Positions 1 to 48,741 of a stretch of 64,000 nt of DNA are shown one piece after another (within the stretch, counting starts at the first letter, position 1; every line of letters begins with the position of its first letter). The notes under the pieces are model-generated. The model had not been told where the DNA came from. It ran no database searches and worked only from the letters and a program-made list of their open reading frames with translations. This DNA is from Magnetococcales bacterium WMHbinv6 (lineage in GTDB: Bacteria > Pseudomonadota > Magnetococcia > Magnetococcales > Magnetaquicoccaceae), in NCBI GenBank assembly GCA_002753135.1, contig PDZV01000001.1, positions 1 through 64,000 of the forward strand, in the 5' to 3' direction. The position numbers were made by a program, and so were the translations under genes.

Positions 1-1
1 C

Positions 2-543
2 TGGGCGGGTGAGGTGGTGCGACTGGTGGGTATTGTGGTCCACCGCTTTTTGCATCGGATCATCGGCGATGGTCTGGCTGCCTGGAGTCCGCAACGGGTC
101 GAGGCCAGAGAGGTGGCCTATCGCGCCCATCTGGACCGTTTGGGGGTGCCGGAAGCGGAGATGGCGCGGCGGTCAAAATGGTGCGCGAGGGGTTGCGCAA
201 TACCCTGCAGGATGCACAGGGCCGTTGGATTCTCGACGACACCCGCCATCGGGAGCCTCGCAGCGAATATGCCCTGACTGGCATGGTGCAGGGACGGTGG
301 CAACATTTGGTTTTGGATCGCACCTTTATTGACAGGGATGGCGTGCGCTGGATCATCGATTTTAAAACCAGTTGGCATGCCGGTTGGGACAAGGAAACGT
401 TTTTTGCCAACGAGCAGCAGCGCTATCAGGCGCAACTGGCCCGTTACGCCGAGTTGATGCGTGTCATCTCCGACCATCCGATCCGTTTGGGGCTCTATTT
501 TCCGCTCCATTGCGGTTGGCGCAGTTGGTCATGGCCGGATTGA
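2..543 (+). pseudogene. AddA/UvrD-like helicase-nuclease, C-terminal end, frameshifted
   Basis: Only the tail of the gene lies in the window. Frame 2 (from base 2 to about 170) reads into a conserved stretch beginning GIVVHRFLHRI; the sequence then continues in frame 1 from about base 169 to the stop at 541-543, so a single-base shift lies near 165-178. The frame 1 part contains WIIDFKTS and a following QRYQAQLARYAELM, the core (D, then K) and trailing helix of the PD-(D/E)XK nuclease domain found at the end of AddA-type double-strand-break repair nucleases. It ends LGLYFPLHCGW, close to the usual family end, so only the reading frame seems damaged. A sequencing or assembly error is an alternative to real decay. 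The following 240 bases hold no gene. Confidence 0.6.
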
Positions 544-786
544 TTCGTTATTACAAGACAACGACTAATCATCGCGTTGTGGAACGCCTGTTTTTTTGGT
601 TGCGGCTATGCCGCGCTATGCCTGAGTGCCGATCAAGTCAACCGTTTAATTCCTTTCTGCAGGCATGGGCCGACGTGGAGTCATGGATCGGTTCTCGATT
701 CGGTGCGGTCTGTAAAGTGTCGTTGATCGGTCTGATATCAACGTAACGGTGGTGACTTGTGAAAGTAGAACTGATATTATCGCCCC

Positions 787-1785
787 ATGAATGAGATCGC
801 TCAACCCCATGATCGCTTGTTCAAGGCACTGATGTCCCATCCAGAGACAGCGGGTGCCTTTCTGCGGGAGAGTCTGCCGCCGGAGGTGTCTCGACTGCTT
901 GTGCCCGAGCCACCGCAATTGGTTGAAGGTTCCTTTATCGAGGAGCGGTTGCGGCCCTATTACTCGGATCGCCTATTCCAGACCAAGACGATCAGCGACA
1001 AGCTGCTGTTGCTTTATGCCCTGGTGGAGCACAAGAGCTATGAGGACGAGCGGGTGGGCTGGCAGTTCCACCGGGGTATGTATGCCTGTATGGAACAGGC
1101 AGTTCGTGAGGATGCGCAGTGGCGACAGTTGCCGGCCGTGTTGCCGCTGCTGCTTTACCATGGCCAGAAGGAATGGCGGATTCCCAACGAATTCATGTTC
1201 CTGGTTGATGCAGATGAAGCCCTGCACCCGTGGCTGTTGAACTTCCGCTTTCCGGTGGTGGACCTTGGACCGATTCCGGATAAACGACTGTCACGAGATG
1301 CTCGTTTGCGAGCCGGCTTGATGGCGTTGAAATACGGGACTCGCGATCCTCAGACGCAGATGGATGCTCTGGAAGACATCACTGCTGCGTTGGTGGATGC
1401 CCCGGAAATTTTGCTGTCAGTGCTGCTGTATCTGTTGACGACATTCCCGAATCTGGATGAAAAGCATGTGCGGCAGGTTATACGCCGTATCAACCCGCAG
1501 GAGGAAGCTGAAATGATGTCACAATTTGCGCAAGAGATATTGGCCAAAGGTAAGTCGGAGTGGGCTGCGATGGTGCGCCAGGAAGGCCGCCAGGAAGGCG
1601 AGCAGATCGGTGAGCAAAAAGGCGAAGCCAAGATCCTGACCCGCCAACTTCAGCGCCGCTTTGGCAACCTTCCCGAATGGGCTAGCGACAAGATTGCCAA
1701 AGCTGAGTTGTCAACCCTGGAGGAGTGGAGCCTCCGCATTCTGGATGCTCCGACCCTGGAGAGCGTGCTGGCGGACCCGTCCTGA
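787..1785 (+). CDS. Rpn-family PD-(D/E)XK nuclease/transposase-like protein with DUF4351 tail
   Basis: A 332-residue Rpn (recombination-promoting nuclease, YhgA-like) protein. The N-terminal half shows the family signature DRLFKALMSHPE, then YYSDRLFQ and LVEHKSYED, which supply the D and E-x-K of the PD-(D/E)XK active site. A Gln/Glu/Gly-rich linker (about 258-280) leads to a C-terminal DUF4351 domain (about 282-332, LTRQLQRRFG). Rpn proteins cut DNA and promote recA-independent recombination, and are often found in many copies. The ATG lies only six bases after a TATTAT -10-like box (775-780) with a weak -35-like GTGACT (752-757), and I see no Shine-Dalgarno, so a leaderless message is possible. 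The next gene is a broken relative. Confidence 0.8.
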   Translation: MNEIAQPHDRLFKALMSHPETAGAFLRESLPPEVSRLLVPEPPQLVEGSFIEERLRPYYSDRLFQTKTISDKLLLLYALVEHKSYEDERVGWQFHRGMYACMEQAVREDAQWRQLPAVLPLLLYHGQKEWRIPNEFMFLVDADEALHPWLLNFRFPVVDLGPIPDKRLSRDARLRAGLMALKYGTRDPQTQMDALEDITAALVDAPEILLSVLLYLLTTFPNLDEKHVRQVIRRINPQEEAEMMSQFAQEILAKGKSEWAAMVRQEGRQEGEQIGEQKGEAKILTRQLQRRFGNLPEWASDKIAKAELSTLEEWSLRILDAPTLESVLADPS

Positions 1786-1943
1786 CACCCGCGACATTCC
1801 GCATCAGGGGTTGTCGAATGTCCCGGATCCGGTGGATGGGAGAGGGGGACTGAGGCTGAGTGGTGTGCACAAAAAGAATTGACAAATAGTCACAGAAAAT
1901 GATAGAGAGTATGGGAAAACGTTACGTTGAAGCTATTGGTTGT
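1636..1943 (+). repeat. Direct repeat copy A (DUF4351 tail plus downstream DNA)
   Basis: Copy A covers the DUF4351-coding end of the intact Rpn gene and about 160 bases beyond its stop. It matches copy B at 2308-2616, offset about 672 bases, with small gaps. The match continues past both stop codons (shared GACACC, CATC and CCGGTGGA blocks and the ATTGACA...AGTCACAGA block), so this is a DNA duplication and not only protein similarity. Confidence 0.75.
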
Positions 1944-2457
1944 CGAAGGGCGTTTTTCCGAGGAGGAGTTGAAGGGCCTGCAGTCTCTGACGGCGATTTT
2001 CTTCCGAATCGGACATCCAGACAGTCCGGCGTCGATTCTGGAGGCCAGTCGCGATTTGGTGGAGTGGTTCGCCAGACACCCGGATGGGCCTCCGGTGAAG
2101 CGATTGTTCCGCGAATTGTTGGCCGTTGGGTTGGAGCGGTTCAGCGGGCCGCACTCTCCGCCGCGCATTCCCGAAGAACTTGAGGAGGTGGTGAATATGT
2201 TGGCGACACACGTAGAAAAATGGTCGAGGGATATTGAGCAAAAGGGTTGGCAGGCAGGTATCCAGGCCGGTGAGCAGAAAGGCCGCCAGGAGGAGGGGGT
2301 ATCAATGCTAACCCGTCAGCTCCAACGCCGTTTCGGCAGCCTTCCCGAGTGGGCTAGCCAGAAGATCGCTGATGCTGATTTGTCCACTTTGGAGGAGTGG
2401 AGTCTCCGTATCCTGGATGCTCCGACCCTGGAGAGTGTGCTGGCAGATCCGTCGTGA
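1927..2457 (+). pseudogene. Rpn-family protein with DUF4351, lacking the nuclease core
   Basis: This reading frame encodes about 176 residues that match the middle and end of an Rpn protein: KLLVVEGRFSEEELKGL, a helical middle part, a Gln/Glu-rich linker and a DUF4351 tail almost the same as the neighbour's. The N-terminal third with the PD-(D/E)XK residues is absent. An in-frame TAG at 1903-1905 closes the frame upstream and the only start available is TTG at 1927, with no convincing ribosome site. I therefore read it as a decapitated copy. The middle part belongs to a different Rpn subgroup from the upstream gene, so it is not a simple tandem copy of it. Confidence 0.7.
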
Positions 2458-2616
2458 CACCTGCGACATCCCGACATCAGGGATTGCCGGATAACCCTGA
2501 TCCGGTGGACGGATGGATGACATGTGACGCTTGGGTGGGGGCGATCAAAAATTGACAGACAGTCACAGAGAATGTCAGAGAATGTCAGAGAGCGTTCTGT
2601 TAGAGCCATCGGTTGG
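2308..2616 (+). repeat. Direct repeat copy B (DUF4351 tail plus downstream DNA)
   Basis: Second copy of the repeat described at 1636-1943. After the stop at 2455-2457 it keeps matching copy A through the AGTCACAGA block and up to the TTGG-containing segment near 2611, where similarity ends just before the tmRNA-like fragment. Confidence 0.75.
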
Positions 2617-2622
2617 GAAACA

Positions 2623-2640
2623 GGAGTTGAACCCGCGTCC
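2623..2640 (-). other. 18-nt tmRNA T-arm-like fragment (possible attachment-site relic)
   Basis: Read on the minus strand these bases are GGACGCGGGTTCAACTCC, which as far as I recall is the T-arm at the 3' end of proteobacterial tmRNA (ssrA). What follows on that strand (TGTTTCCC) no longer matches a CCA-ending acceptor stem, and no tmRNA body precedes it. Integrases often use this part of ssrA, so the fragment could be the far attachment site of a lost island. An 18-nt match is short, so confidence is low. Confidence 0.3.
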
Positions 2641-2693
2641 ACAGCCACCTCATCGGACTCCGGTGAAAAGTTTAACGATACTGGAAAAACCAT

Positions 2694-3098
2694 TTAATAC
2701 TGGAAGGATGCACAATTCAATACCGTTTGGATAACCAAGATGCCGTCAAACCGTTCTCTTACTGCACCGCAGCAAAATGGTAGAGAATTTTCCGAAATGC
2801 GTATCGTCTCCTCCTGCAAAAGTGTTTCAACTAACACTCTGTACGACTCCACGCTGGAAACCTCATGTGCCAGAGTCGTACCAGGCTTCATCTTGTGTAC
2901 GGCTCTGGTTGTTTCTTCCGGTTCTGGCAAGGCTGCATCCTTCTCAAGCCAGCCGTGACTTTCAGCCAACTGTCTGTCTTTCCTGACTGTTACGCGATGA
3001 AACCCCATCTGCCGACCAATGGCTCGTTCCGTTTGCCCCAACCTCAACCGCCGAACCAATTCCTTGATGTCAAACACGGTCTTTCCCTTTCCTGCCAT
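2694..3098 (-). pseudogene. IS21-family transposase IstA, N-terminal remnant
   Basis: The first ~95 residues are IstA-like: a helix-turn-helix with TERAIGRQMGFHRVTVRK, a charged linker, and SSVESYRVLVETLLQE, the usual lead-in to the second helix-turn-helix. IstA is normally about 400-500 residues with a DDE core. Here similarity stops near base 2810 and the rest (to 2694) is unrelated sequence in the same frame, so only the head survives. No istB is present. The start at 3098 is followed by typical IstA sequence. Confidence 0.7.
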
Positions 3099-3250
3099 GA
3101 TGTTGTCTCCTGGAAAGAAGAGTCAATTCCAAGAGAACAGATTGAATCATGAGCCGGATTAAGGAAAGTCAGATCTGGTACACTATGCCCGATCATCGGT
3201 GGTACACAATGGGTGAACATCAAGTGGTACAGTATGGGCGGCTACTGACA
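2805..3250 (-). mobile_element. IS21-family element, left-end remnant
   Basis: Upstream of the istA remnant three short repeats of the form GGTACAnnATG stand at about 3177, 3201 and 3226, spaced by 24-25 bases, as in the multi-repeat ends of IS21 elements. The outermost bases read TGTCAGTAGCC on the minus strand, giving a TG terminus at 3250. The other end is missing, so the element was cut by deletion or another insertion near 2805. The 135 bases between its end and the next gene contain a TTGACA (3343-3348) but no clear -10. Confidence 0.6.
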
Positions 3251-3385
3251 GGTTTTAATTTCCGGCAAGGGGGCGTGCCTCAAAAATCAAATCACACACT
3301 TTGCACGACCTGTTTTTCTGTGTGATCGTGCCGCACACAATCTCTTGACAAGCGGAAGCAGATTGCGGAATCTCACTTTTTTTTC

Positions 3386-5797
3386 ATGACAAGGACTGTT
3401 TTGATGCCCTATTCCCAGCAAAAAGAGTCCAGCCGCTGGATGACCAAGCGTTATCTCTTGGCCTTGACGGTAATCGCCTTGCTGGCCTGTTCGGCCTATT
3501 TTGCTTTAAGCCTGGTGATTGCCCAGCAAGAGAGTACCGGTGCGGTGGTCAATATCAGCGGTCGGCAGCGGATGTTGTCGCAACGTTCCACTCTGTTTGT
3601 GCAGCGGATGCTGCTTTCCCATACGCTTGAAGAGTATACCCTCTCCCGCGATGCCTTGCTCAAGGCGACCGATCGGATCGAAGAATCGCACTATGGATTG
3701 ACCAAAGGCAGTGAGGCGTTGGGGCTGCCGAGCAGCATGAGCCGTCAGGTTCAGGCCATGTATTTTGCCGGAGATGATCCCCTGGACAGCCGCATGCGCA
3801 CCTTTATTGCCTCCCTGCGGCAGGTGTTGGAGACCCCTTTCGGCTCGTTACATACAGAATTGCCTTATGTTCACTATATCTTAACCACGGCACCCGGCCC
3901 GCTGTTGACCTCTTTGGATGCCATGGTCTGGCAGTATCAACGGGAAGGGGAGGCGGTGATCAAAAATCTGCACCGCATGGAAACCGCCGTGCTGCTGTTG
4001 ACCCTGTTGGCTTTGGGGTTGGAAGTGTTGCTTATTTTTCGACCCATGGTACAACAGGTGGTGCAGCAGATTGGGCAACTGCATGAGATTACCGAAAATC
4101 TCAATTGCGAAGTCCATGAAAGGACGGCAGCGCAACAGGCGTTGCAGGCCATTCGTGATGCCTTGGAGGAGCGGGTCAGCGAACGAACAGCCGCCTTGAC
4201 TTACGAAATTCAGGAGCGGGAAAAAATAGAACGCTCTCTGCGCGAAAGCGAACAACGGTTTCGTGCCGTTGCCGAGTCGGCCAGCGAAGGGATCGTCACC
4301 ATTGATGGGGAGGGACAAATCGTCACCTGGAACAGAGGGGCGGCGACCATTTTTCACCACACAGAGGCGGAGATGATCGGCACCTGCGCAGAACGGTTGA
4401 TGCCGGAGCGGTATCGGCATGCCCATCGCGCCGGTATCGCACGTCTCAAAAGCGGAGAAGCCACCCGCATCATCGGTTCTACCCAGGAGTTTTATGGTTT
4501 GCGCAAGGATGGGCAGGAGATGCCGCTGGAGTTGTCCATTGCCGCCTGGTTTGCCGGAGAGCAGCCTTTTTATACTGGAATCATTCGGGATATTTCTGAG
4601 CGCAAAAAAAACGAAGCGGCTTTGCATGCCGCCAAAGAGCAGGCCGAAGCGGCCACGCGCGCCAAAAGCCTTTTTCTGGCGACCATGAGCCATGAAATTC
4701 GCACGCCGATCAATGCCTTGTTGGGGATGGGAGAGTTGTTGCTGGAGACCTCCTTGAGCGAAGAACAGCGCCATTTTCTGGAAGTATCCAATCAGTCCGG
4801 GGCCGCCCTGTTGGCGTTGATCAATGATATTCTTGATCTCTCCAAAATTGAGGCGGGGCAGTTGGACATGGAGTGCATCCCCTTTGATCTGCGCAATCTG
4901 CTTTTCGGGACCATCGAGATCATGAATCTGCTGGCCAAAGATCGGGGCAACCAGTTGCAGTTGCACTGGCAGGAGTCGTTGCCGCAGTGGGTGATCGGCG
5001 ATCCGGGGCGATTGCGGCAGGTGTTGTTGAATTTGCTCAACAACGCCATCAAATTTACCCAGCAGGGGATGGTGACGGTTACGGTGCAGGCGGGAGAAGG
5101 GGAGAATATTCATTTTTCGGTTGCCGATACCGGGGTCGGTATTGCTCCAGAGAAGTGGGAGGCGATCTTTTTGCCTTTCAATCAGGCCGATATTTCCGTG
5201 ACCCGCACCTTTGGCGGCACCGGTTTGGGGTTGACCATCTGCCGTCAAATCATTCAACACGCCGGTGGCCAAATTGCTGTTGAGAGTCGACTTGGGGAGG
5301 GAAGCCGTTTTTATTTCCACTGGCCCTTGCCGACCATCGATCGGCAGTCAGTCACCGGTGTGCTGCCCGAACAGACCAGCTTGCGTCGTCCTGCCTGTGT
5401 CGATGCGGCGTCACCCAGGCTGTTATTGGTGGAAGATTCCGAAGAGAATCAAATTTTGATGCGGGCCTACCTGCGCAAAGGTCGATTCCAACTGGAGGTG
5501 GTCTGCAACGGTGCCGAGGCAGTCGAACGCATGCGGGGGGGTGGTTTTGATCTGATTTTGATGGATATACAAATGCCGGTCATGGATGGCTATACCGCCA
5601 CACGTCTCATTCGCGAATGGGAGCAGAGCCTGGCCGTGCCGCAAAGGGTGCCGATCATCGCTGTGACGGCGGATGCCATGAAAGAGTCTTTGGATCGTGC
5701 CATCCAGGCCGGGTGCGATCAATGTTTGACCAAGCCCATCTCGAAAAAAAGATTGTTGGAAGTGTTGGCGACCTATTTTCCCGCACAAGAGGGTTAG
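3386..5797 (+). CDS. Hybrid sensor histidine kinase (PilJ-PAS-HisKA-HATPase-REC)
   Basis: An 803-residue membrane hybrid kinase. Order: transmembrane helix about 24-46; a periplasmic PilJ-type (type IV pili methyl-accepting N-terminal) domain with NISGRQRMLSQRS; a second helix near 200-220; a coiled coil; a PAS domain about 290-400 (EGIVTIDGEGQIVTWN); HisKA with SHEIRTPINALLG and phospho-acceptor His436; HATPase with NLLNNAIKFT and GTGLGLTIC; and a C-terminal receiver with DIQMPVMDG, phospho-acceptor Asp727, and TKPIS. It passes phosphate from His to its own receiver and probably to a separate phosphotransfer protein that is not in the window. In-frame ATGs at 3386, 3404 and 3437 make the exact start uncertain; none has a strong ribosome site. 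The next gene is convergent. Confidence 0.88.
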   Translation: MTRTVLMPYSQQKESSRWMTKRYLLALTVIALLACSAYFALSLVIAQQESTGAVVNISGRQRMLSQRSTLFVQRMLLSHTLEEYTLSRDALLKATDRIEESHYGLTKGSEALGLPSSMSRQVQAMYFAGDDPLDSRMRTFIASLRQVLETPFGSLHTELPYVHYILTTAPGPLLTSLDAMVWQYQREGEAVIKNLHRMETAVLLLTLLALGLEVLLIFRPMVQQVVQQIGQLHEITENLNCEVHERTAAQQALQAIRDALEERVSERTAALTYEIQEREKIERSLRESEQRFRAVAESASEGIVTIDGEGQIVTWNRGAATIFHHTEAEMIGTCAERLMPERYRHAHRAGIARLKSGEATRIIGSTQEFYGLRKDGQEMPLELSIAAWFAGEQPFYTGIIRDISERKKNEAALHAAKEQAEAATRAKSLFLATMSHEIRTPINALLGMGELLLETSLSEEQRHFLEVSNQSGAALLALINDILDLSKIEAGQLDMECIPFDLRNLLFGTIEIMNLLAKDRGNQLQLHWQESLPQWVIGDPGRLRQVLLNLLNNAIKFTQQGMVTVTVQAGEGENIHFSVADTGVGIAPEKWEAIFLPFNQADISVTRTFGGTGLGLTICRQIIQHAGGQIAVESRLGEGSRFYFHWPLPTIDRQSVTGVLPEQTSLRRPACVDAASPRLLLVEDSEENQILMRAYLRKGRFQLEVVCNGAEAVERMRGGGFDLILMDIQMPVMDGYTATRLIREWEQSLAVPQRVPIIAVTADAMKESLDRAIQAGCDQCLTKPISKKRLLEVLATYFPAQEG

Positions 5798-5831
5798 GCC
5801 GTGCTGACATTTGGCCTTGCCGCATGAGATT

Positions 5832-7313
5832 TTAATAACGGTTACTGTTGGCGATCCACTCGCGTACTTTTTCGTAGAGCAAGGCCCGCTGATTGCGGCT
5901 ACGATCCTGACTGATCCAATCCAGCAGTTCGTTGAGCAGCTCACTCATCCAGGCTCCCTGTGGTTGACGAACCAGATCGAGAATTTCCCCACCGGTAATG
6001 GCCAGATCTTTGGCATGGGGGCGTTGTTTGGCATGTTGCAGGGTCCGGTAGCGGGTCAGCACCCGGTACAGTTGTCGATCCAAGCCGGGAACGGTGCTGC
6101 TGGGAGCGGTGCTGGAGGTGGTTTGCTGCTCTTGCTCTTTGCTGTGCGCCACCTGCAAAGCGTGGATAAGGCGGAACAGACCCGGGACGGGAACTTCCTG
6201 ACTCATCAACCGGGTCAGGGTGCGATCGGTTGGGGTCAGGGATATTTCCATATGGTGCAGCAGTTGAAAAATATGTTGCTGACGACGTTGCGAAAAACGA
6301 AATTTTTTTAAAATTTCCTGAATACGTCGGGTGGAAAGATCATGCAGGGCGGAACGGGTGTGTCCCTTTTCCCGGGCGATACAGTTGAGTTCACCCATGG
6401 CGTAAAGCAGGGCTGTCCAGCGCAGATCGTGCCAGGGAATCACCTCATCGGCTTCCGGTTCGCTGATTTCGCTCATGACCTGAATGGCGCGGCGGCAGCG
6501 ATAGGCGGGGGTTTCACCGCTTTCGCAGATGGGTGGTGAGGTCATGTCACCAAACATTTCCTGCGCCAGGGGCGAGAAAAAAAAGTGCTGGACAATCTGC
6601 TGGCGTGTTTCTCCGCCGAAGGAGAGGGAAAAAAAACGGTCCAATTCGGCGCGCAGCTTTTTTTTTGGGACTGACTCCAGAGAAAACTCTTCGGCAATGT
6701 GGCGCTCCTCCGGGTCGCTACTGCCGTCGAGTTGCAGCAGAAAACGGAAGAAACGCAAGGCCCGCAGCGGATCACTTTCCAGAGAGTCGCGGCCATTGAC
6801 CAGACGGATATGCCGTGCGGCCAGATCCTGTTGACCATGAAACGGATCCAGCAACGGTCCGTCTGGCCAGGCGTAGGCCATGGCGTTGACCGTCAGATCG
6901 CGATGCAGGAGATCTTCTTCGATGGTAGCCGGGTGGTCCGGGCGATAGCGGCAGGTGGCAATTTCGATGTGGGACAGGGGCATGGCAAAGTTGAAAACTT
7001 CCTCCTGCTCCTCTTGCGAAGCCTGCTCGTTGCCTTTTTTCAGTGGCAGGATCAAACTGCTGTAACCGGCGGTCCAAATTTTGTGGTGTTTGGTGTTGAG
7101 GGTCAGGAAGGAGCCTCCCCCTTCCCGCAGCAGATCAAAGCATTCCGCCATGGGGCGCTGTACCAGGAGATTGAGTTCGTAGGCCAGGGGTTTGTTGTCG
7201 AGCATATTGCGCACGGTACCCCCGACCAGATAGATCGGACCGATCAATTTGTTGAGTCTATCCAGCAGGGATTTGATAGAAGGGGCAAACAGGTCATGGA
7301 AGTTGCTGGTCAT
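5832..7313 (-). CDS. CCA-adding enzyme/poly(A) polymerase family protein with altered active site
   Basis: A 493-residue protein of the class II nucleotidyltransferase family (tRNA CCA-adding enzyme/poly(A) polymerase). It keeps YLVGGTVRN (about 28-36), HIEIATCRYRP, HRDLTVNAMAY (about 137-147) and the SDPLRALRFFRF block of the RNA-binding neck. However, the strand that should carry the metal-binding D-x-D reads YELNLLV, giving Glu46 and Asn48, and the G-x-VRD aspartate is also Asn. It is therefore likely inactive or altered. The frame is open far upstream, but the ATG at 7313 has a good AGGAG-type ribosome site 8 bases before it. That start lies inside the divergent mtaB, overlapping its start by 18 bases. 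Confidence 0.75.
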   Translation of the reverse strand: MTSNFHDLFAPSIKSLLDRLNKLIGPIYLVGGTVRNMLDNKPLAYELNLLVQRPMAECFDLLREGGGSFLTLNTKHHKIWTAGYSSLILPLKKGNEQASQEEQEEVFNFAMPLSHIEIATCRYRPDHPATIEEDLLHRDLTVNAMAYAWPDGPLLDPFHGQQDLAARHIRLVNGRDSLESDPLRALRFFRFLLQLDGSSDPEERHIAEEFSLESVPKKKLRAELDRFFSLSFGGETRQQIVQHFFFSPLAQEMFGDMTSPPICESGETPAYRCRRAIQVMSEISEPEADEVIPWHDLRWTALLYAMGELNCIAREKGHTRSALHDLSTRRIQEILKKFRFSQRRQQHIFQLLHHMEISLTPTDRTLTRLMSQEVPVPGLFRLIHALQVAHSKEQEQQTTSSTAPSSTVPGLDRQLYRVLTRYRTLQHAKQRPHAKDLAITGGEILDLVRQPQGAWMSELLNELLDWISQDRSRNQRALLYEKVREWIANSNRY

Positions 7314-8639
7314 TCTACCTCTCCTGCCCGGTATTTTACGGTTTTGACCATGGGTTGCCGGGTCAATCAAGTGGAAACGGAACGGCTGTCGCACACAGGG
7401 GCACGCTACGGCTATTATCCGACGGCGGAAGAGCAGCCACCGGATTTGATCATTATTAACACGTGTTCGGTGACTTCGGAAAGTGATCGTCAAGCACGGC
7501 AGTTGATTCGCCGTCTGGCGCGGGAGCATCCCCAGGCCGGATTGGTGGTCACCGGTTGTTATGCCCAGGCGCAATCGGCAGAGCTGGCGGCGATGGATGG
7601 GGTGGTTCTGGTGGTCGGCAACGCGGAAAAAGAGCGTCTGTGGGAGCATTTGCCGTTGCTGTCGCCACGACAGGATAGTGCTGGTATCGAGGCAACAGGT
7701 CAGTGGGCCTCGCTGCAGGAGGTGGCGCTGGTCGACCATTTTGCCGAACGCAGCCGGGCCTTTTTGCAGGTGCAGGATGGGTGTGACCGACGCTGCACCT
7801 TTTGTACGATTCCGGCCTTGCGGGGGGCGAGTCGCTCTTTCAGCCCCGACTATGTCCTGGCCCAGGCGGCACGCTACCAACAAAACGGCTACCGCGAACT
7901 GGTGCTGACCGGCATCAATATGGGCTCTTATGGCCGGGACCGGCAGCCGCCGACCGCGCTGGCCGAACTGGTCAGCCGTTTGTTGGCGGCGCGGGGGGAG
8001 AGTCGGATTCGTCTCTCTTCGCTGGATCCGTTGGACCTGGATGAGGCGTTGCTGCAACAGTTTATGCCGGGTTCGGGATTATGTCCCTATGTGCATTTAT
8101 CGATCCAGGCCGGGGATGAGCGCATCCTCAAACGTATGGGACGTGGCTACGGTCGGGATCTGGTGGCCGAGAAGGTGGCCCGTCTGCGTTCCATCTGCCC
8201 GGAGGTGGTTTTGGGGGCTGACGTGATTGCCGGTTTTCCCACCGAAAGCCCGGCAGCCTTCGGCCAGACCTTGGCGCTGTTGCAGGAGATTGGGGTCACC
8301 TTTTTGCATGTTTTTCGCTATTCCGATCGACCGGGCACCCCGGCCTCGGCGATACCGGCCCGTTTTCGGGTTGCCGAGCGGGAGATCAAACGGCGTGCCG
8401 AAACCCTGCGCCAATGGGCCGCCTCCCGCCTGCCCGCCATCGCAGCACAACGGATCGGCAGCCAGGAAGAGGTGTTGGTGGAAAGCTGCCGTGACGGCCT
8501 CGCCCGTGGCAAAAGCGGCGGCTTTTTGCCGGTGCGGATGGTGGATGACGGTCGGGTGCGTGTCGGCTGGCTTTACAGGGTTAATATTTCGGGTTATGAT
8601 TCAAATTACCAAGAGTTAGTTGGTACCTTGTGCACCTGA
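7296..8639 (+). CDS. mtaB: tRNA t6A37 methylthiotransferase MtaB
   Basis: A 447-residue radical-SAM methylthiotransferase that converts t6A to ms2t6A at position 37 of tRNAs reading ANN codons. The N-terminal UPF0004 domain has three cluster cysteines (Cys21 in TMGCRVNQ, Cys57 in NTCSVTSESD, Cys88 in VTGCYAQ). The radical-SAM motif GCDRRCTFCTIP gives Cys163, Cys167 and Cys170 (C-x3-C-x2-C). A short TRAM-like tail ends the protein. NTCSVT followed by an ESD-type sequence, and the absence of the RimO signature, point to the MtaB branch. I chose ATG 7296 because AGAAGGGG lies about 10 bases before it; the long open frame upstream is antisense to the neighbouring gene. Its first 18 bases overlap the start of the divergent CCA-like gene. 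Confidence 0.88.
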   Translation: MEVAGHSTSPARYFTVLTMGCRVNQVETERLSHTGARYGYYPTAEEQPPDLIIINTCSVTSESDRQARQLIRRLAREHPQAGLVVTGCYAQAQSAELAAMDGVVLVVGNAEKERLWEHLPLLSPRQDSAGIEATGQWASLQEVALVDHFAERSRAFLQVQDGCDRRCTFCTIPALRGASRSFSPDYVLAQAARYQQNGYRELVLTGINMGSYGRDRQPPTALAELVSRLLAARGESRIRLSSLDPLDLDEALLQQFMPGSGLCPYVHLSIQAGDERILKRMGRGYGRDLVAEKVARLRSICPEVVLGADVIAGFPTESPAAFGQTLALLQEIGVTFLHVFRYSDRPGTPASAIPARFRVAEREIKRRAETLRQWAASRLPAIAAQRIGSQEEVLVESCRDGLARGKSGGFLPVRMVDDGRVRVGWLYRVNISGYDSNYQELVGTLCT

Positions 8640-8688
8640 TCGCTCCGATTATTGTTGCGGATGCCGTGTTTCGTTAGGAAACAACAAG

Positions 8689-9141
8689 ATGATTCCGAGA
8701 CGCGACTCGTTTAACCCAAAAAGACGCCTGCGTCCTGCACCTCAAAACAGCAGCGAGCGGAGGCACCTTGACGATTTGTCGCAACGGGTTGATTACGGCG
8801 GTAACCCAGAACATAAACGCAATCCAGGCGATTTTGCGCTTACACCGGCCAACACGCCAAGACCTGACAAGTCTTTGTGCGACAGTGCAGAGATTTTTAC
8901 CCGGTCGCAGGCAATCAAACTGCTTCAGACAGGCATACGCAAGGGGCTGATCAGTGTGCGGGAAAGAGAGGGGTGGCCGCAAAATGTTTGGGCAGTCACG
9001 CTACAGGGGGTACCCTTGGAAGCCCAGTTGGAGAATGTTGCCCAGTTGGAGAATGTTGCACGAGGGGTATACCATGGCTATCCTATGCCGGATGCAGATC
9101 CCTTTCGGCAAGAGGTGTTGCAACGGTGGCAACAACCATGA
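8689..9141 (+). CDS. Uncharacterised small protein (first gene of a coupled pair)
   Basis: A 150-residue soluble protein with no signal peptide or membrane helix. Residues 36-49 read YGGNPEHKRNPGDF, followed by a Pro-rich PANTPRPDKSLCD, a helix, GWPQNVWAV and a YHGYPMPDADPF end. I recognise these as conserved blocks of an uncharacterised family that travels with IrrE-like proteins, but know no function for it. The basic N-terminus suggests contact with nucleic acid. Start: ATG 8689 with AGGAAA nine bases upstream. The stop overlaps the next ATG as ATGA, so the two are translated together. A perfect 18-bp tandem duplication (9022-9057) repeats QLENVA inside the protein. Confidence 0.7.
   Translation: MIPRRDSFNPKRRLRPAPQNSSERRHLDDLSQRVDYGGNPEHKRNPGDFALTPANTPRPDKSLCDSAEIFTRSQAIKLLQTGIRKGLISVREREGWPQNVWAVTLQGVPLEAQLENVAQLENVARGVYHGYPMPDADPFRQEVLQRWQQP
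9022..9057 (+). repeat. Two perfect 18-bp tandem units inside a coding region
   Basis: The unit GCCCAGTTGGAGAATGTT occurs at 9022-9039 and again at 9040-9057 without a mismatch. It adds six residues (AQLENV) in frame, so the protein stays intact. Perfect identity suggests a recent slippage event. Confidence 0.9.
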
Positions 9142-10454
9142 GTGGATCCTTTTCTCTTGTTCCAGAATGGGAACCGACGCAGCACGGTCCTGACGAGGTC
9201 AGACAGACATCCGGCTTCCTGCGTATCAGCATAGGTAACCGCCTGGTCACGCAGGTGGTGGATGATTGGGCTAGATCGGTTCGCGATACCGTTCGGGTCT
9301 CCTGTTATCCACTGGCTCTCTGGTTCGCCTCCTCCTGGTGGCGACTTTGTTGGGAGCAAGCCCCGAATCCTGAACGAAGCACCGATTGGGCCCTGTCACA
9401 TGAGATGCACGGTGCTGGGCATGGTTTTCTTTGGCCTGTCATGCGTTTTGAGTCGGATGGTGAGAGGGTCAGCATCATCTGCAGGGCATCCACTACAGGC
9501 AGCAATGAGCCTGTTCGTTATTTGACCTCCTGCCGTGAATCCATTCCCGTCGAAGCCTTCATGGAGGCGGTTACCACGTTTATTCATACGGTTCTGGCGC
9601 GTTTGGAGATTGTGGGCATTCAAAATACCGAATTGCACACCCTTTGGCGAGAAGTGAACGCCGAACGCGGAGAGCGGCAGAGTACCTTTTATCGCAAGTT
9701 GGAAGCCTTTTTGGGCTTTGATCCAGACGATGCTCCTGAAGTGGTTGCCAGCAAACTGCTGCAGTTATCGCCAGAGGCTGGCGAGGCTGCGATTGCGGAG
9801 ATCGCTGTCGCCTGCGCTGGTCGTTCCCCATCCTTAATGCTGAGTGATATAGAAAAAAGTATATTTTCTCGCGGTGTTGCCGGAGATCTTTCCTGCATTC
9901 CCGTTTTGACCCAGCGTGGTTCGTATCAGCCAAGCAATGATCTGCCTCGAAACCGGGGCAGAGCCATGGCGCAGACATTACGCGCTGCTTTGGATAACAG
10001 AATGGATCCCATTGCGGACCAACGCCTCTGCGACCTTTTTGGTTTGAGATTACAGGATTTGAACAGTGCAGATGCGCCAATGGATAATACGCCTTGGGGG
10101 CTGGCCATCCGGCAGATCGAGGGTAATCATGTGCATCTGCTCTTTCGGCGTAAACACTTGACGGGTCGACGCTTTGAGATGGCCCGCTGGCTGGGTGATA
10201 TGCTGGCGGCACCGCTTCCTGACCGTTGGTTGCCAGCAACCGACGCGAAGAGCGCTCGTCAGCAAATGCAACGTGCGTTTGCCGCCGAGTTGCTTGCCCC
10301 GATCGAGGCCTTGCAATCCTTTTTGGGAGATGAGCCCAGCGACGAGGAGCGCATTGAGGAATCGGCACACTATTTTGGTGTCTCTCCCCTGATGGTCAAG
10401 AGTCATCTGGCCAATCATGGCCTGCTTTCTCCAGAGGCAGTAGAGATCTATTGA
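9138..10454 (+). CDS. IrrE/ImmA-like protein without a HExxH motif (second gene of a coupled pair)
   Basis: A 438-residue protein starting in the ATGA overlap with the upstream gene. The C-terminal third resembles the ImmA/IrrE peptidase fold: RFEMARWLGD (near residue 345), then ARQQMQRAFAAELLAP, and ESAHYFGVSPLMVKSHLANHGLL, the usual helical end of IrrE proteins. The zinc motif HExxH is not there; the matching helix reads RFEMAR, so metallopeptidase activity is doubtful. The N-terminal two thirds are specific to this family (blocks GFLWPVMRFESDGE and VRYLTS) and I know no function for them. IrrE-like proteins often act as the regulatory or antitoxin half of toxin and phage-defence pairs, which makes that the leading guess here. 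Confidence 0.65.
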   Translation: MSGSFSLVPEWEPTQHGPDEVRQTSGFLRISIGNRLVTQVVDDWARSVRDTVRVSCYPLALWFASSWWRLCWEQAPNPERSTDWALSHEMHGAGHGFLWPVMRFESDGERVSIICRASTTGSNEPVRYLTSCRESIPVEAFMEAVTTFIHTVLARLEIVGIQNTELHTLWREVNAERGERQSTFYRKLEAFLGFDPDDAPEVVASKLLQLSPEAGEAAIAEIAVACAGRSPSLMLSDIEKSIFSRGVAGDLSCIPVLTQRGSYQPSNDLPRNRGRAMAQTLRAALDNRMDPIADQRLCDLFGLRLQDLNSADAPMDNTPWGLAIRQIEGNHVHLLFRRKHLTGRRFEMARWLGDMLAAPLPDRWLPATDAKSARQQMQRAFAAELLAPIEALQSFLGDEPSDEERIEESAHYFGVSPLMVKSHLANHGLLSPEAVEIY

Positions 10455-10494
10455 TCGTGTTCCTTGCGCCATCGTGCGCGGCAAGTCGTGACGA

Positions 10495-15384: not shown

Positions 15385-17079
15385 ATGAACATCAACGCCG
15401 CCATCGTCGATCAAAGATTGGCCGCCGTCCGCGATGAGATTCGCCAGATAGCAGGCGAAGAATGGAAGATAAACGACGAAAACAGATTGAAATCGTTGGC
15501 TTTTGTCTTGCTGCTGGTGCGCACCATGTTGGATCTCGACAATGAGGAGGCCCTGGATTGTCTCACCGAAGGGGGCGGTGATGTTGGCGTGGATGCCTTA
15601 CATCTTGGCGAGGTGAGGGATGGTGAGTTTACGGTTTCGCTCTTTCAGGCCAAGTACAAACAATCCATGGAGGTCAACGCCAACTACCCGGAAGAGGGTG
15701 TCAAGGCACTGATCCATGCCATCCGCTACCTGTTTGATCCCTCAACGGTTCTGGAATTTGTCAACGAACAGCTTAAAGCCAAAATCGAAGAGGTGCGTTC
15801 GCTGATTCGCGATGGTTACATCCCCCAGGTGCGTGCCCTGGCCTGCAACAACGGCTTACCATGGAACAACGCTGCCGAGGAAGAGATCAACCGCGCAGGC
15901 TTTGGCAACCAGGTAAGCTGGGAATACATCAATCATGACCGCCTGGTCACGATTTGGCAGGCGGCCAGACCGGTCAACGACACCTTGCGCATGAGTGGCA
16001 AGGCGATGGTGGAGGAGTTCAATTTCAGTCGGGTACTGGTTGGTCGCATGGCCGTGGCAGAGGTGGCCTCCCTGATCGAACGCCATGGCGAACGCCTTCT
16101 GGAACGCAATATCCGCCGCTATCTGGGATTGCAGGGCAACCGGGTCAACGAGGGTATCCGCGCCACCCTGCGCAGTGGCGAGAGTGGAAATTTCTATTTT
16201 TACAACAACGGTATCACACTGATCTGTGAAAAATTCTCCTACAATGCACTGCAGGCAGGTGATTATCAGGTCAAGGTGGACAACCTGCAAATCATCAATG
16301 GTGGCCAAACCTGCATGACCATTTTCAAGGCCTCGAAAGGGACTTTTTTTCCTCTACCTTCCGACGCTTATGTGCTGATCCGTTTGTACCAACTGGAGAG
16401 TGATAACGAAGATCTGGTGCGACGGATCACCTTTGCCACCAACAGTCAAAACCCGGTAGACCTGCGTGATTTGCGCGCCAACGATGATCGGCAACGCCGT
16501 TTGCAAACCGATATAGAACAGTTGGGCTACACTTATCACCGCAAGCGGGCTGACCACTCACTGAAAGCAACAGACATCACCGCCGGGGTGGCCGCTGAGG
16601 CCATTCTTTCCGTCTGGCGGCTGCGCCCGCATCAGGCCAAATTTTTTGCCAGGGAACATTTCGGCAAACTCTACGACATCATTTTTACCGATGATCTGAC
16701 CGGGGCGCAAACCATTCTGGCCGTCCGCATCTACCGCATCAGCGAAAATCGACGCCGACGCCCGCAAAACACAGATCCGGCCTTTGTGCGCTACGCCTCC
16801 TGCTTCCTGGCCATGCGGATGGGGATGTACCTGTTGCGTGATCTGCAAATCGAGCTGAAAGGACTGAATCATAAGACCTTCTCAAAGGCTCAACAGTTGC
16901 TTGATAGCAACGCAGAAAATTATCTCCAGAATGCCATTCAGGATATTGGCAAGGGGTTGTCTTATCTCTATGACAATCCTGACTCTCTTTCTCTGCAACA
17001 ACTCGCTGCCACCTTTCGCCGTGGCGATTTGATCGTCAAATCGAACGAAGAACTCATGAAGATTCTTGCCGACTTGTAA
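15385..17079 (+). CDS. AIPR-family (abortive infection phage resistance) protein
   Basis: A 564-residue cytoplasmic protein. Residues about 61-92 contain EGGGDVGVDAL and, after a beta strand, FQAKYK, which fits a PD-(D/E)XK nuclease core (Asp70, Gln88-Ala-Lys90) with Gln in place of Glu. The AIPR domain follows: a SGNFYFYNNGITLIC block (about 268-282) and QIINGGQTCMTIF (about 305-317). AIPR proteins were named from a lactococcal abortive-infection gene and are common in phage-defence loci and next to restriction genes. The ATG has AAGGAG eight bases upstream. It is first in a rightward set with the ATPase and HNH genes; the 54-base gap to the ATPase suggests one transcript. Confidence 0.82.
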   Translation: MNINAAIVDQRLAAVRDEIRQIAGEEWKINDENRLKSLAFVLLLVRTMLDLDNEEALDCLTEGGGDVGVDALHLGEVRDGEFTVSLFQAKYKQSMEVNANYPEEGVKALIHAIRYLFDPSTVLEFVNEQLKAKIEEVRSLIRDGYIPQVRALACNNGLPWNNAAEEEINRAGFGNQVSWEYINHDRLVTIWQAARPVNDTLRMSGKAMVEEFNFSRVLVGRMAVAEVASLIERHGERLLERNIRRYLGLQGNRVNEGIRATLRSGESGNFYFYNNGITLICEKFSYNALQAGDYQVKVDNLQIINGGQTCMTIFKASKGTFFPLPSDAYVLIRLYQLESDNEDLVRRITFATNSQNPVDLRDLRANDDRQRRLQTDIEQLGYTYHRKRADHSLKATDITAGVAAEAILSVWRLRPHQAKFFAREHFGKLYDIIFTDDLTGAQTILAVRIYRISENRRRRPQNTDPAFVRYASCFLAMRMGMYLLRDLQIELKGLNHKTFSKAQQLLDSNAENYLQNAIQDIGKGLSYLYDNPDSLSLQQLAATFRRGDLIVKSNEELMKILADL

Positions 17080-37687: not shown

Positions 37688-40651
37688 CTACATCAAAATT
37701 TCCTCAACCCGTGTGGCGACCAGATAGCGGGCCGGATTGGGGTCGCTGGCCAGGGCGTGGAAGTGGGCTTTGCCGCAGGCGATTTTTGCCTTTTCTTTGT
37801 CGCGCAGATCGTCAATAAAGAGTTGTCCGCCTGCTTGGCCCTTGGTTTCGACCACCAGGTACACTTTTTCTTCTCCGTTCTTGTCCACCAGAACAGCCCA
37901 GTCTGGCCTGTAGGCACCCAGTGGGGTGGGGACTTCAAACCAGCTCGGCAGTTTGGCGTAGAGGCGCACGGCCTCGTTTTTTTCCAGTTGTTCGGCAAAT
38001 TGTCGTTCCACCCCGGCGGAATCATAGAGAACATGCTCATAGACCGATTTTTTGGTGTCCATGAGCATCTCCCGGAGATAGCCTGACAGCTCTTCCTGCG
38101 CAAAAAGTTCCTGGGCGTAAAAATGGTCTGCACCGATGCGCTGGTAACGGATGCCGTCGACCAAAGCCAGGCGTTTGGCACGATTGATCGCTTCCGAGGC
38201 GATTTCGATAAATTGTTGCGGATTGCGGGCAAAATCGTCCAGTCGCTTGCTGTCGAGCAGAATCTGCACCAGGCTGCGCCGGGTCAGTTGGGTGTTGTCC
38301 TGCAATACAGAAAGCAGATCGGGCAGTTCGAGGTCGCGTTCGTCCAGGGAGGTAGTTGTGGCAACGGCGGTTTCTGTGGCGTTGACCCCGCCTTTGCTGA
38401 TGACAATATCGGCCTTGCGCACCTGCAGTCGGGCTCTGCTGACCGCTGGCGCGTTGTGGATGGCCTGCGCGCAATCGGCCAATAATTTGTCGTTATCGAA
38501 GACAACCCGATAGGTGGTTTTGTGTTTGATGCGATCCCATAGCGCCCGAAACGCGGCACTCTCCAGAATTGCCTGACGGCTTTTGACCGTGATGCGTTCA
38601 TCGGCATTTCTGACGGGCAGCCGACCGGACAATTTTTTGAGAATTTCCTGCAGTTGTGGCCATTGGGCGGCATACGCTGCCGGGACGATCAGCCTCTCTT
38701 CCTGCAAGGCCAGGCGCAAGCTCTGCTGAATTTTGCCTTTGCTGTCCAGATAACCGTTTTGCTGCAGATGATCCCAGAGACGTTGCGAATTTTCCACCCC
38801 CAGCGGTGTGCTGTTTCCCTGCGCGTCACGCACCGGCACGGCGGCAAATTGATGTGGCACTACCACATCGAAGCGGATGCCGGACTCTTCTTCGATCTCC
38901 TGTTGCAGGGTTTCGGCAAACTGTTCGTAGCTTTCGTTGGCGACCACGGTCAAGGTGTTGAGTTCGAAGCCTCGTTGCCGTTGTCCGGATTGATCGACGC
39001 ACAGCCGCAAGCCGCGCCCGATCGATTGCCGCCTGGCCAATGCGCTGCCCATGTCCCGCAGCACACAGATCTGAAACACATTGGGGTTGTCCCACCCTTC
39101 CCGCAAGGCGGAATGGGAAAAGATGAATTTCAGAGGGGTCTCCAAACTGAGCAGACGTTCTTTTTCTTTCATGATCAGGGTGTAGGCCCGTTGGGCGTTG
39201 TCGCGGTTGACCTGGTTGTTTTCCGCCGTATCGCTCCAGCGTCGGTTTTTGTCGACAGAAAAATAGCCGTTGTGGACCTCTTCGCTCAGGGTGACGGTAT
39301 CCACTTCCCGAAACAGGGAGTGATAATCGGGATGGCGCATCATGCGGCGATACTCTTCCTCAAACATGCGGGCATATTTGCCTTTGACCGCCTGGCCATC
39401 GGCATCATAAGAGCGGTAGTGGGCAACCGCATCGATGAAGAAGAGCGACAGCACCTTGATGCCCAGTGGCCGGAGCCGTTTTTCTTTATCCAAATGTTCC
39501 TTGATGGTACGGCGAATCATCATGCGTTTTATTTCGTCCTGGTCCACATCACCGAAGGATTCACCAGGACGGAGAAATTGCTCGGCACCAGGAAGGCTGA
39601 GTTCGAGAAACGTATCCCCTTTGGCGGTGCGAATTTCGCCAATGCGGTGACCGGCGTAGAGTGCCCGACCGCTTTTTTGTTCCAGATCATCACCGCTGCA
39701 GAGTGTCACCGTTTTTCGTTGCACACTCTTGCCTTGCAAGAGATCCATTTCCACCTGGGCTTCGATGCGTCCCCGCTTGTTGCTGACCGAGAGCAAACGG
39801 AGGTAGGGTTTGTTGTGGCCCCCGGTCGCTTCCACGGAGGCCACTTCGATCTGTTTGACCAGACGTTGTTCAAAGGCATCCACCGCATCGAGGCGGTAGA
39901 TCCTATGGTATTCCTCTTTGTGGGTTGCCGAATAGCGCAGAGTGCAGAGCGGGTGCATCTCCGCCAGGGCCTCATTGCCTTTGCCAGTTTGTCCGCCACT
40001 CACGCTTTGTGGTTCATCCACCACCAGGATGGGGCGGGTTGCCCGCACCAGATCAATCGGTTTTTCGCCGCCGGTTCGTTCACTCTCTTTGTAGAGGTTA
40101 TTGATATCCTGTTTGTTGATGGCCCCGACGGTAACGATCATGATTTGGATATGGGAATTGGTGGCAAAATTGCGAATCTGGCCTGGGATGCTGGAATCGT
40201 AGAGAAAATATTCAAAAGGGGTGTTGGCGTAGAGTCCCCGGAAATGTTCTGCCATGATTTGCAGTGATTTATACACCCCCTCTTTGATGGCCACTGAGGG
40301 GACAACGATGACAAATTTGCTGAAGCCATAGCGTTTGTGCAGTTCAAACAGGGTGCGCAGGTAGACGTAGGTCTTGCCGGTACCGGTCTCCATTTCCACG
40401 GTGAAATCCATCGATTGGAGCTTTTTGGCCGGTTCCAGACCATGGGCGAGTTGAATGGCCTGCAGGTTGCTGAGCAGGGTATCATCCAGCAGTTTTAGAC
40501 GGTTACCTATGCCTAACTCGTTAAACAGCTCTTTCTTTGGGTGGGTGACCGTAAATTCGGTTCGTCCTCACTCCTGTCCCTTGAACAGGGCACACACCGC
40601 CTCGATGGCGGCCAGTTGATAATCCAGATCGGGTTCAAAGTGCAGTTTCAT
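37688..40651 (-). pseudogene. res: Type III restriction enzyme Res subunit with an in-frame TGA
   Basis: The natural start is ATG 40651 (MKLHFEPDLDYQLAAIEAV), overlapping the rhuM stop. Codon 28 (40570-40568) is TGA; after it the frame continues GRTEFTV and on through a full Res. Motifs: Walker A METGTGKTY, motif II VVDEPQS, motif VI RQSIGRGLR, and a C-terminal PD-(D/E)XK nuclease with YRPDWAVL then VVETKGQ. The family reads GQExCRTEF here, so TGA replaces an ordinary residue. An internal start at ATG 40411 would give a 907-residue protein lacking the Q-tip region but keeping Walker A. Alternatives are readthrough, a sequencing error, or true inactivation, leaving an orphan methyltransferase. 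Confidence 0.8.
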
Positions 40652-41652
40652 GCTTTTTTCTCTGCTTTGGGCAGTTGTTTGACCATTTGATCAAAATCCG
40701 ACAGATAGGATTGATCGCGATTGACGCGGAATTTCTCAAACTCTTGTTCGGCATGGCTTTGTGCCACTTGGGCAGAGACGAAACCGGCATGGTGCAGAAT
40801 ATCGCGGTCGTTCAGGGTCAAAAAGCCATCCAGTTTGTTGATCCAATCCTGCATGCTCATGGCGATGCGTCGTTGGCACTGTCCTTCGGCGAAGATCAGG
40901 TATTGTTCCGCCAGATTGTTGAGTGCCCGCAGTTCGTCTTCTGTCAGATAGTTTTTGGCGACGGTTGCATCCGTTTTGCGTGGCCAGGCCCCTTCCCAGG
41001 TGGTCAGTCCCATGTTGGGCTTGTTGCTGTCGGCCCGTTCACGGATTAATTCTGCCGCCGTGTGGCCATGGATGGCAAAGTGGACTTTGTTTTGTACCGT
41101 GGCAAAAAAGGTTCCGGTCAGCGGATGGTTGCGCTCATAATCGACGCTGGTGGCGTATATATCGGTAATTTTTTGATAGAAACGCCGTTCGCTGGTGCGG
41201 ATATCCTGCAGGCGTCGGCTTAATTCATCGAAATAGTCGGGTGCCTGCCCTGGATTTTTCAGCCGCTGATCATCCAGCACAAAGCCTTTGATCAGGTACT
41301 CTTTGAGTTTGTCGCTGGCCCACTGACGAAAACGCACCCCGGCGGGGCTGCGCACCCGGTAGCCCAGTGCCAGTACCATATCCAGATTGTAGTAGGCCAC
41401 GTCATACTGTTTACCATCTGCAGCAGTTGTTCGGAAAAACCGAACAACTGCCGACTCCTCCAGTTCTCCATCCGCAAGAATATGGGTAATGTGTTCGCTG
41501 ATTGTCGCCTTGGATTTTGCGAACAATTCTGCCAGTTGCTTTTGGTTCAGCCAGAGGGTTTCCTCTTTCAGCAACACCTGCAGGCGGGTCTCTCCCTTTT
41601 CCGTCTGGTAGAGGAGAATTTCCCCATGGGGCGGGGTTTGCTGGTTGGGCAT
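40648..41652 (-). CDS. rhuM: RhuM-family virulence/defence-associated protein
   Basis: A 334-residue full-length RhuM. It opens with a winged-helix-like region (LWLNQKQLAELFAKSKATIS) and the conserved YYNLDMVLALGYRVRSPAG and GFVLDDQRLKN blocks, followed by a helical region with RRFYQKITDIYATS and a Fic/DOC-like HGHTAAELIRERAD. The function is not established; it was first named from a Salmonella island and is often set inside restriction operons. An AAGGAGGAG ribosome site stands seven bases before ATG 41652, arguing against the longer frame from 41772. It lies between mod and res, with its stop overlapping the res start (ATGA). Confidence 0.85.
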   Translation of the reverse strand: MPNQQTPPHGEILLYQTEKGETRLQVLLKEETLWLNQKQLAELFAKSKATISEHITHILADGELEESAVVRFFRTTAADGKQYDVAYYNLDMVLALGYRVRSPAGVRFRQWASDKLKEYLIKGFVLDDQRLKNPGQAPDYFDELSRRLQDIRTSERRFYQKITDIYATSVDYERNHPLTGTFFATVQNKVHFAIHGHTAAELIRERADSNKPNMGLTTWEGAWPRKTDATVAKNYLTEDELRALNNLAEQYLIFAEGQCQRRIAMSMQDWINKLDGFLTLNDRDILHHAGFVSAQVAQSHAEQEFEKFRVNRDQSYLSDFDQMVKQLPKAEKKA

Positions 41653-41662
41653 GTTCTCCTCC

Positions 41663-43549: not shown

Positions 43550-43870
43550 GGTGGCTCTTGGTTTCTGGTTGGTGTCATCGGGAAGTAGTCAAACAGCTTG
43601 CGCTTGGCCAGCGCTGCAGTAGCACAGCATGTGACAGAATTGCCAGATAGAGCAGGCAGGCCAGGCTGACAAGCAGAAAAAGGCAACAAGCAGTCAACTG
43701 TCACCCGTGGGGGCTTTTTTTCGTCGTGTTTTTCCGGCCATTTTGGGGATGGATTGCAAAATGGGCTCGGTGACAGAGGCGGTGACAACCTATAATGGAC
43801 ATTTTATTGTTTAACTCATAACAAAAATCATTGCAATAGATGGCGGTCAAAATTCGTTCGGTTAAGTGAG
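43550..43870. other. Intergenic region between the XRE gene and mod
   Basis: About 320 bases without a supported gene. A minus-strand frame covers 43546-43788 but has no recognisable content. A run of seven T's at 43719-43725 follows GTGGGGGC without a clean stem. An AT-rich stretch (43790-43850) could hold the mod promoter, but I see no good box pair. Confidence 0.5.
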
Positions 43871-44338: not shown

Positions 44339-44375
44339 GATCTACTCTGTAGTCGCATGCATGATAAGTGATAAA

Positions 44376-44404
44376 ACGATACCCAATATGGTATTATCCG
44401 TCAA
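44376..44404 (-). promoter_or_regulatory. Promoter with inverted-repeat operator before the XRE gene
   Basis: On the minus strand TTGACG (44404-44399) and TATCGT (44381-44376) are 17 bases apart. The dyad ATACC-N6-GGTAT (44379-44394) falls within the spacer and overlaps the -10 by three bases, the usual place for a repressor to block RNA polymerase. The message would have a leader of about 30 bases before ATG 44338. Confidence 0.5.
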
Positions 44405-44513
44405 GATAATTTACAAAAACTACGTGGAAACAAAGTGTTATGCAAAAATATTCCTGGTGATCTTTATCACAACAGACGCCGTCGCCCGCTAAGATGCAAA
44501 ACCGCCAGCCCGT

Positions 44514-48710: not shown

Positions 48711-48741
48711 AGGGGAATGGTACGTTGGCGGTGTGCAGGGT

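What the first reader, a model, noticed from the sequence alone, without database searches (positions are those of the whole stretch)
8689..10454. Translationally coupled, uncharacterised gene pair with an IrrE-like second protein
Two genes overlapping by ATGA encode a 150-residue protein with the block YGGNPEHKRNPGDF and a 438-residue protein whose last third resembles ImmA/IrrE but lacks HExxH. Neither has a function I can name. The tight coupling, the small first product and the IrrE-like second one resemble toxin-antitoxin or phage-defence modules, and defence loci lie close by. This is the best candidate in the window for an undescribed system.
Basis: partly seen in the sequence, partly recalled or inferred. 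Interest (0 to 1): 0.75.

Follow-up and report, generated by a model that had tools for sequence, protein, structure and literature searches.

The report
Probable new bacterial toxin–antitoxin gene pair
Two overlapping genes travel together as a mobile cassette across at least ten bacterial phyla and look like a toxin of no known family held in check by a protein built on a dead protease, so they are probably an undescribed variant of a known anti-virus toxin–antitoxin design.

Summary
In detail: window 8689-9141 (150 aa, P1) and 9138-10454 (438 aa, P2) overlap by ATGA, and P2's C-terminal domain has the IrrE/CapP fold without HExxH. The pair is a real, widespread module. In six-frame searches every genome with P1 has P2 next to it, and full-length P2 is nearly always preceded by P1 or its wreck. 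It is patchy, sits at unrelated loci in relatives, occurs on plasmids, and in a sister genome the mtaB/RND junction that holds it is empty. P1 matches no family and no solved fold. P2 matches RosmerTA antitoxin models (RmrA), but all 84 aligned copies have replaced the three zinc ligands, mostly by Arg, Asp/Glu and Gln. P1 is repeatedly destroyed beside intact P2 (at least 12 changes on the tree), while the reverse was seen once, the pattern expected if P1 is the toxin and P2 the antitoxin. Best reading: a RosmerTA-like toxin-antitoxin cassette with a new toxin family and a pseudo-peptidase antitoxin. Toxicity, neutralisation and phage defence are inferred, not shown. The window's own P1 carries an 18-bp tandem duplication in its conserved EAQLEN motif and may be damaged.

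The parts
8689..9141 (+). P1, 150 aa: proposed toxin; no known family
   Evidence: Conserved with P2 across phyla; invariant in 64 homologues: Y36, G38, K43, P53, K61, L63, C64, D65, G82, P97, W101, Y128, H129, P132. AF2 pLDDT 85.7, pTM 0.81; no PDB or viral fold match.
9022..9057 (+). Perfect 18-bp tandem duplication inside P1 (EAQLENVA-QLENVA), not seen in the aligned homologues
   Evidence: the 6-residue insert is visible against the homologues. It may damage this copy.
9138..10454 (+). P2, 438 aa: proposed antitoxin; unique N-terminal domain plus IrrE/RmrA/CapP-like pseudo-peptidase domain
9138..9857 (+). P2 N-terminal domain (about residues 1-240), with conserved SWWRLxWE, AHExxxAGxGFxWP and RxLEAxLGFDPDE blocks and no PDB fold match
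   Evidence: Alignments; fold search. Most of it exists alone on an Acidithiobacillus plasmid, so it is probably a separable module.
10146..10398 (+). Degenerate M78 (IrrE-like) site, about residues 337-420: R350, D354, Q375 in place of the H, H, E zinc ligands
   Evidence: R350 84/84, D/E354 82/84, Q375 84/84, no HExxH in any member; Pfam M78 hit. The ligand equivalence is my own alignment to the HExxH...E pattern.
9138..9141 (+). ATGA stop/start overlap (translational coupling)
   Evidence: close spacing or overlap is conserved in most homologues.
8640..10494 (+). Cassette between convergent mtaB and RND genes; the same junction is empty in sister genome G002
   Evidence: locus L182.

Best explanation
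A mobile two-gene toxin-antitoxin cassette related to RosmerTA. P1 is the toxin, most likely a small intracellular enzyme of a new family. P2 is the antitoxin and sensor. It is proposed to bind P1 directly and hold it inactive, with its unique N-terminal domain and/or the former peptidase pocket forming the binding or sensing surface. A trigger, most plausibly phage or another invading element, would loosen the complex and free P1 to stop growth of the infected cell. Shown here by computation: the obligatory pairing, mobility, loss of the zinc site, relation to RmrA/CapP/IrrE, and preferential decay of P1. Inferred: toxicity of P1, neutralisation by P2, direct binding, the trigger and the phage-defence role. 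The chemistry of P1 is unknown.
For: (1) Pairing: in 399 genomes of the phylum sample all 16 genomes with P1 also have P2 adjacent, and all 15 with full-length P2 have P1 or its remnants. 7 of 392 genomes in another order have P1, all beside P2. 76 of the 80 best of 290 relatives in the genome collection have P1 directly upstream. Deeply diverged plasmid copies are still paired. P1 and P2 distances correlate, r=0.76, 0 of 2000 permutations as high. (2) Mobility: patchy presence, at least ten phyla, plasmids, unrelated loci in relatives, an empty site in G002, a second lineage within the window's own family (G013), no conserved third gene. (3) Polarity: about 15 loci have a frameshifted, stopped, truncated or missing P1 beside full-length P2, needing at least 12 changes on the P2 tree for the 14 such rows in it. 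One locus shows the reverse (G521). In genomes scanned with both queries or with P1 alone it is 6 against 1 although P2 is three times longer (binomial P=0.0015). P1 is also better conserved than P2, mean identity 53% against 39%. (4) Kinship: 39 of 84 P2 proteins hit PADLOC RmrA, best 1.2e-7, and 25 hit capP. RmrA is a tested antitoxin with an ImmA domain, paired with diverse toxins, in phage-defence TA systems (PMC10440598). (5) Some neighbours are defence genes: dptFGH and restriction genes on plasmids; BrxD, OloB, JetD, AbiLi, SngB and methyltransferases among 115 nearest genes. (6) A read-through fusion of a natural same-frame pair (L066) folds with pLDDT 91.3 and pTM 0.83, high for 588 residues unless P1 is placed on P2.
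Against: No experiment. No catalytic motif of a known toxin in P1 and no fold match, so toxicity is inferred from decay patterns only. Most P1 lesions were found in loci collected through P2, which favours intact P2; the less biased subset is small. Some lesions in draft assemblies may be sequencing errors. The interface was not measured: no PAE or coordinates were available and the chains were tethered. The pair was not found in phages or viral contigs, unlike some RosmerTA systems. Defence neighbours were counted without a background control.
Confidence: 0.7

Rival explanations
1. P2 is the effector and P1 a small regulator or inhibitor of it (antitoxin-first reading, as in most type II operons).
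For: The small first gene and large second gene match the usual antitoxin-toxin size order; P2 has two domains.
Against: P1 is lost repeatedly while P2 stays intact, which would be lethal if P2 were the toxin; P1 is more conserved than P2; P2's only recognisable domain is a dead peptidase related to RmrA antitoxins.
Confidence: 0.1
2. A phage-defence or regulatory complex that is not a toxin-antitoxin system: both subunits are needed for one activity, and P2 senses a ligand through its altered pocket.
For: Strict co-occurrence, conserved substituted pocket (R350, D/E354, Q375), defence neighbours.
Against: If both were needed, P2 should decay as fast as P1 once P1 is lost; instead P2 stays open in about 15 loci.
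Confidence: 0.15
3. An ordinary cellular gene pair with a housekeeping role unrelated to conflict.
For: Long-lived, well-conserved proteins, mostly on chromosomes.
Against: Absent from most close relatives, at different loci where present, empty site, found on plasmids, frequent decay of P1.
Confidence: 0.05

Closest known systems
RosmerTA (RmrT toxin + RmrA antitoxin with ImmA/M78 domain)
   Same: Two adjacent genes; the M78-like protein is the (proposed) antitoxin; toxin-first order occurs (58% of ImmA/Rosmer antitoxins, PMC10440598); toxins are diverse and unrelated; P2 homologues hit PADLOC RmrA models.
   Different: P2's zinc ligands are lost in every aligned member, so it should not act as a zinc protease; it carries a unique ~240-residue N-terminal domain instead of the small HTH reported as frequent in that group; P1 matches no PADLOC model convincingly; RmrA similarity is partial and weak (best 1.2e-7).
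CapP (CBASS-associated M78 peptidase) and IrrE/PprI
   Same: Same predicted fold of the C-terminal domain (7t5t, 3dti).
   Different: Those are active HExxH peptidases (from general knowledge: they cleave a repressor protein). P2 has no HExxH, and no repressor gene is conserved beside it.
COG2856-Xre pairs of Makarova et al. 2009 (PMC2701414)
   Same: M78-like protein in a mobile TA-like two-gene operon.
   Different: There the partner or fused domain is an Xre HTH and the peptidase has HExxH; here the partner is P1, which matches no known domain.

Membership tests
RosmerTA | Antitoxin with ImmA/M78 domain related to RmrA | tested here: met
   39 of 84 P2 homologues hit RmrA models, best 1.2e-7; the window's own P2 does not hit RmrA, so met for the family and only weakly.
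RosmerTA | Intact peptidase (HExxH) site in the antitoxin | tested here: not met
   No HExxH in 84 members; H, H, E replaced by R, D/E, Q. The RosmerTA source text calls the domain a protease; whether every RmrA keeps the motif was not tested.
RosmerTA | Partner matches a known RmrT toxin | tested here: not met
   No PADLOC match for P1 or its homologues beyond chance, best E=0.013 and not to RmrT; toxins are diverse in that group, so this is weak evidence against membership.
RosmerTA | Toxicity neutralised by the antitoxin; phage protection | not testable with these tools
   Needs experiment.
Type II toxin-antitoxin module | Two adjacent or overlapping genes, strictly co-occurring and horizontally mobile | tested here: met
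Type II toxin-antitoxin module | Antitoxin tolerates loss of the toxin, not the reverse | tested here: met
   with collection bias noted.
Type II toxin-antitoxin module | Direct protein-protein neutralisation | tested here: inconclusive
   Tethered AF2 model pTM 0.83, no PAE available.
Active IrrE/ImmA (M78) peptidase | HExxH plus third ligand Glu | tested here: not met

The most novel reading that the evidence does not exclude
P1 is the founding member of a new toxin family with a new fold and chemistry, and P2 is a new class of antitoxin in which a dead IrrE-type peptidase pocket was rebuilt (Arg, Asp/Glu, Gln) into a ligand sensor that arms the toxin on infection.
Probability: 0.3. Interest if true: 0.8.

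Novelty: new variant of a known kind. Interest (0 to 1): 0.6.

Why it matters
It defines a pair of protein families present in at least ten bacterial phyla; P1 and the N-terminal part of P2 have no name in Pfam, NCBIfam, PHROGs or PADLOC. It gives a specific, testable prediction of which gene is the toxin. It also poses a clean question: how an ImmA-type antitoxin can control its toxin when the protease has been dead throughout the family, although protease action is the mechanism suggested for its living relatives.

Tried and rejected
Pfam, NCBIfam, PHROGs and PADLOC on P1 gave only chance hits. PDB sequence profiles gave none for P2 and only chance hits for P1; PDB and viral fold searches for P1 gave none (low-scoring R.PabI rows were rejected as noise). 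Phage and viral-contig searches found no relatives. An unpaired fused alignment (A5) was mis-aligned and discarded, and A7 was slightly shifted; A6 was used. A conserved third gene was sought and not found. Integration next to tRNA genes was considered because of G029 and G004, but it is not general. G021's P1 hit (E=3.5e-4) was rejected: it did not recur with the broader profile. Loci L044, L052, L076, L097, L115 and L169 were flagged automatically as P1-damaged, but on reading look intact, or are cut by Ns or use another start, and were not counted.

Full report
What is there. Window 8689-9141 and 9138-10454 are two open frames overlapping by ATGA, 150 and 438 codons, between mtaB (ends 8639) and a convergent RND pump gene (ends 10495). 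The genome (G000, 3.84 Mb, 80 contigs) belongs with genomes whose named relatives are Magnetococcales MAGs.

The pair is real and obligatory. P2 relatives at 46-61% identity (one at 33%) occur in other Magnetococcales genomes, and every full-length one is preceded by P1 or its remains. A scan of genome contigs gave 290 relatives. The best 80 span Pseudomonadota, Acidobacteriota, Cyanobacteriota, Planctomycetota, Chloroflexota, Spirochaetota, Armatimonadota, Thermodesulfobacteriota, Myxococcota and Hydrogenedentota, and 76 of 80 have P1 directly upstream. Of the other four, one is cut by the contig edge with a P1 tail visible, one is a deletion remnant, and two lack P1. Independent six-frame searches for P1 and for P2 in the same 399 genomes agree: 16 of 16 genomes with P1 have P2 beside it, and 15 of 15 full-length P2 have P1 or remnants. 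In another order 7 of 392 genomes have P1, all beside P2. Very diverged plasmid copies in Agrobacterium and Tistrella keep the pairing. P1 and P2 distances correlate (r=0.76, 0 of 2000 permutations).

It moves as a two-gene unit. Presence is patchy even within the genus. No flanking gene of the window recurs beside the pair in the other Magnetococcales (only a distant histidine-kinase homologue in one). No third gene is widely shared across 84 loci. In G002, a same-genus genome without the pair, mtaB and the RND gene lie convergent with under 100 bp between the protein matches; in the window the cassette sits in exactly that junction. P2 of G013, in the window's own family, groups with Acidobacteria and desulfobacteria, not with its relatives. 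Copies lie on plasmids, some conjugative. None was found in phage records or viral contigs.

What P2 is. The C-terminal part hits Peptidase_M78 (39 of 84 members) and PADLOC RmrA and capP models (39 and 25 of 84 members, best 1.2e-7 and 3e-5). The predicted structure, from a natural same-frame pair in Methylobacter (L066, TAA-ATG read through so both proteins fold in one model), matches CapP (7t5t) and IrrE (3dti) with Foldseek probability 1.00, though the E-values are weak (0.017, 0.038). The zinc site is gone in all members: the HELGH positions read R-x-x-G/A-D/E and the third ligand is Gln, with R350 and Q375 invariant in 84 of 84. Such strict conservation of the replacements suggests a reused pocket rather than drift (inference). 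The N-terminal ~240 residues match nothing solved.

What P1 is. No family in Pfam, NCBIfam, PHROGs or PADLOC; AF2 model pLDDT 85.7, alpha+beta, with no fold match in PDB or viral structures. Fourteen positions are invariant in 64 copies, a pattern that suits an enzyme (inference).

Which is the toxin. Reading all loci, P1 is frameshifted, stopped, truncated or absent beside full-length P2 in about 15 loci: G009, G010 (C-terminus), G018 (an insertion), G029, G687, L049, L051, L062, L082, L100, L106, L109, L114, with no P1 found in L067 and L099. G004 is a further P1 frameshift, but its P2 is cut by the contig end. The 14 such rows in the P2 tree need at least 12 changes. The reverse, P2 stopped beside intact P1, was seen once (G521). 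Most loci were collected through P2, which biases this; in genomes scanned with both queries or with P1 alone the count is 6 to 1 (G004 included), against an expectation of about 1 to 3 from gene lengths (P=0.0015). A Rhizobium plasmid has a broken P1 and no P2 detected. This polarity, with P1 more conserved than P2 (53% against 39%), is what a toxin (P1) and antitoxin (P2) would give. The window's own P1 has a perfect 18-bp tandem duplication in the conserved EAQLEN motif, absent from the aligned relatives, and may itself be impaired.

Mechanism. Commitment: P2 binds and holds P1; a trigger releases it; P1 stops growth. The tethered model (pLDDT 91.3, pTM 0.83) is compatible with a docked complex, since an unplaced P1 should pull pTM down, but no PAE or coordinates were available and the tether biases it. 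The phage link rests on RosmerTA kinship (PMC10440598) and on neighbours, without a background control.

Verdict. It is best filed as works-like-RosmerTA, not as a proven member: the RmrA-like domain is present, but an intact protease site is absent and the toxin is new.

Noticed in passing
window 15385-17079 (+): AbiU-like protein (PADLOC AbiU, E=2.5e-44), about 5 kb downstream of the pair.
   Followed up: partly
window 40648-50421 (-): Defence-like cluster: PDC-S05 type protein (probably RhuM), type III methyltransferase (E=1.5e-214), HKD+SNF2 helicase (E=4e-116) and a mad3-like protein.
   Followed up: partly
L036 (genome G029) about 8480-10230: The truncated P1/P2 copy is bracketed by tRNA-Asp and tRNA-Val genes, and the surviving 3' part of P1 begins close to the tRNA-Val gene. 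Not general in other loci.
   Followed up: partly
L165 (Acidithiobacillus caldus plasmid pTcM1) 5091-5579: A stand-alone copy of part of the P2 N-terminal domain (model positions 21-175) without the pseudo-peptidase domain or P1, between an ISL3 transposase and an N-6 DNA methylase.
   Followed up: no
L166 (Massilia sp. H6 plasmid) 1-9317: Pair sits directly after dptFGH phosphorothioation-dependent restriction genes; P1 is annotated there only as an 80-codon fragment although the full frame is open.
   Followed up: no
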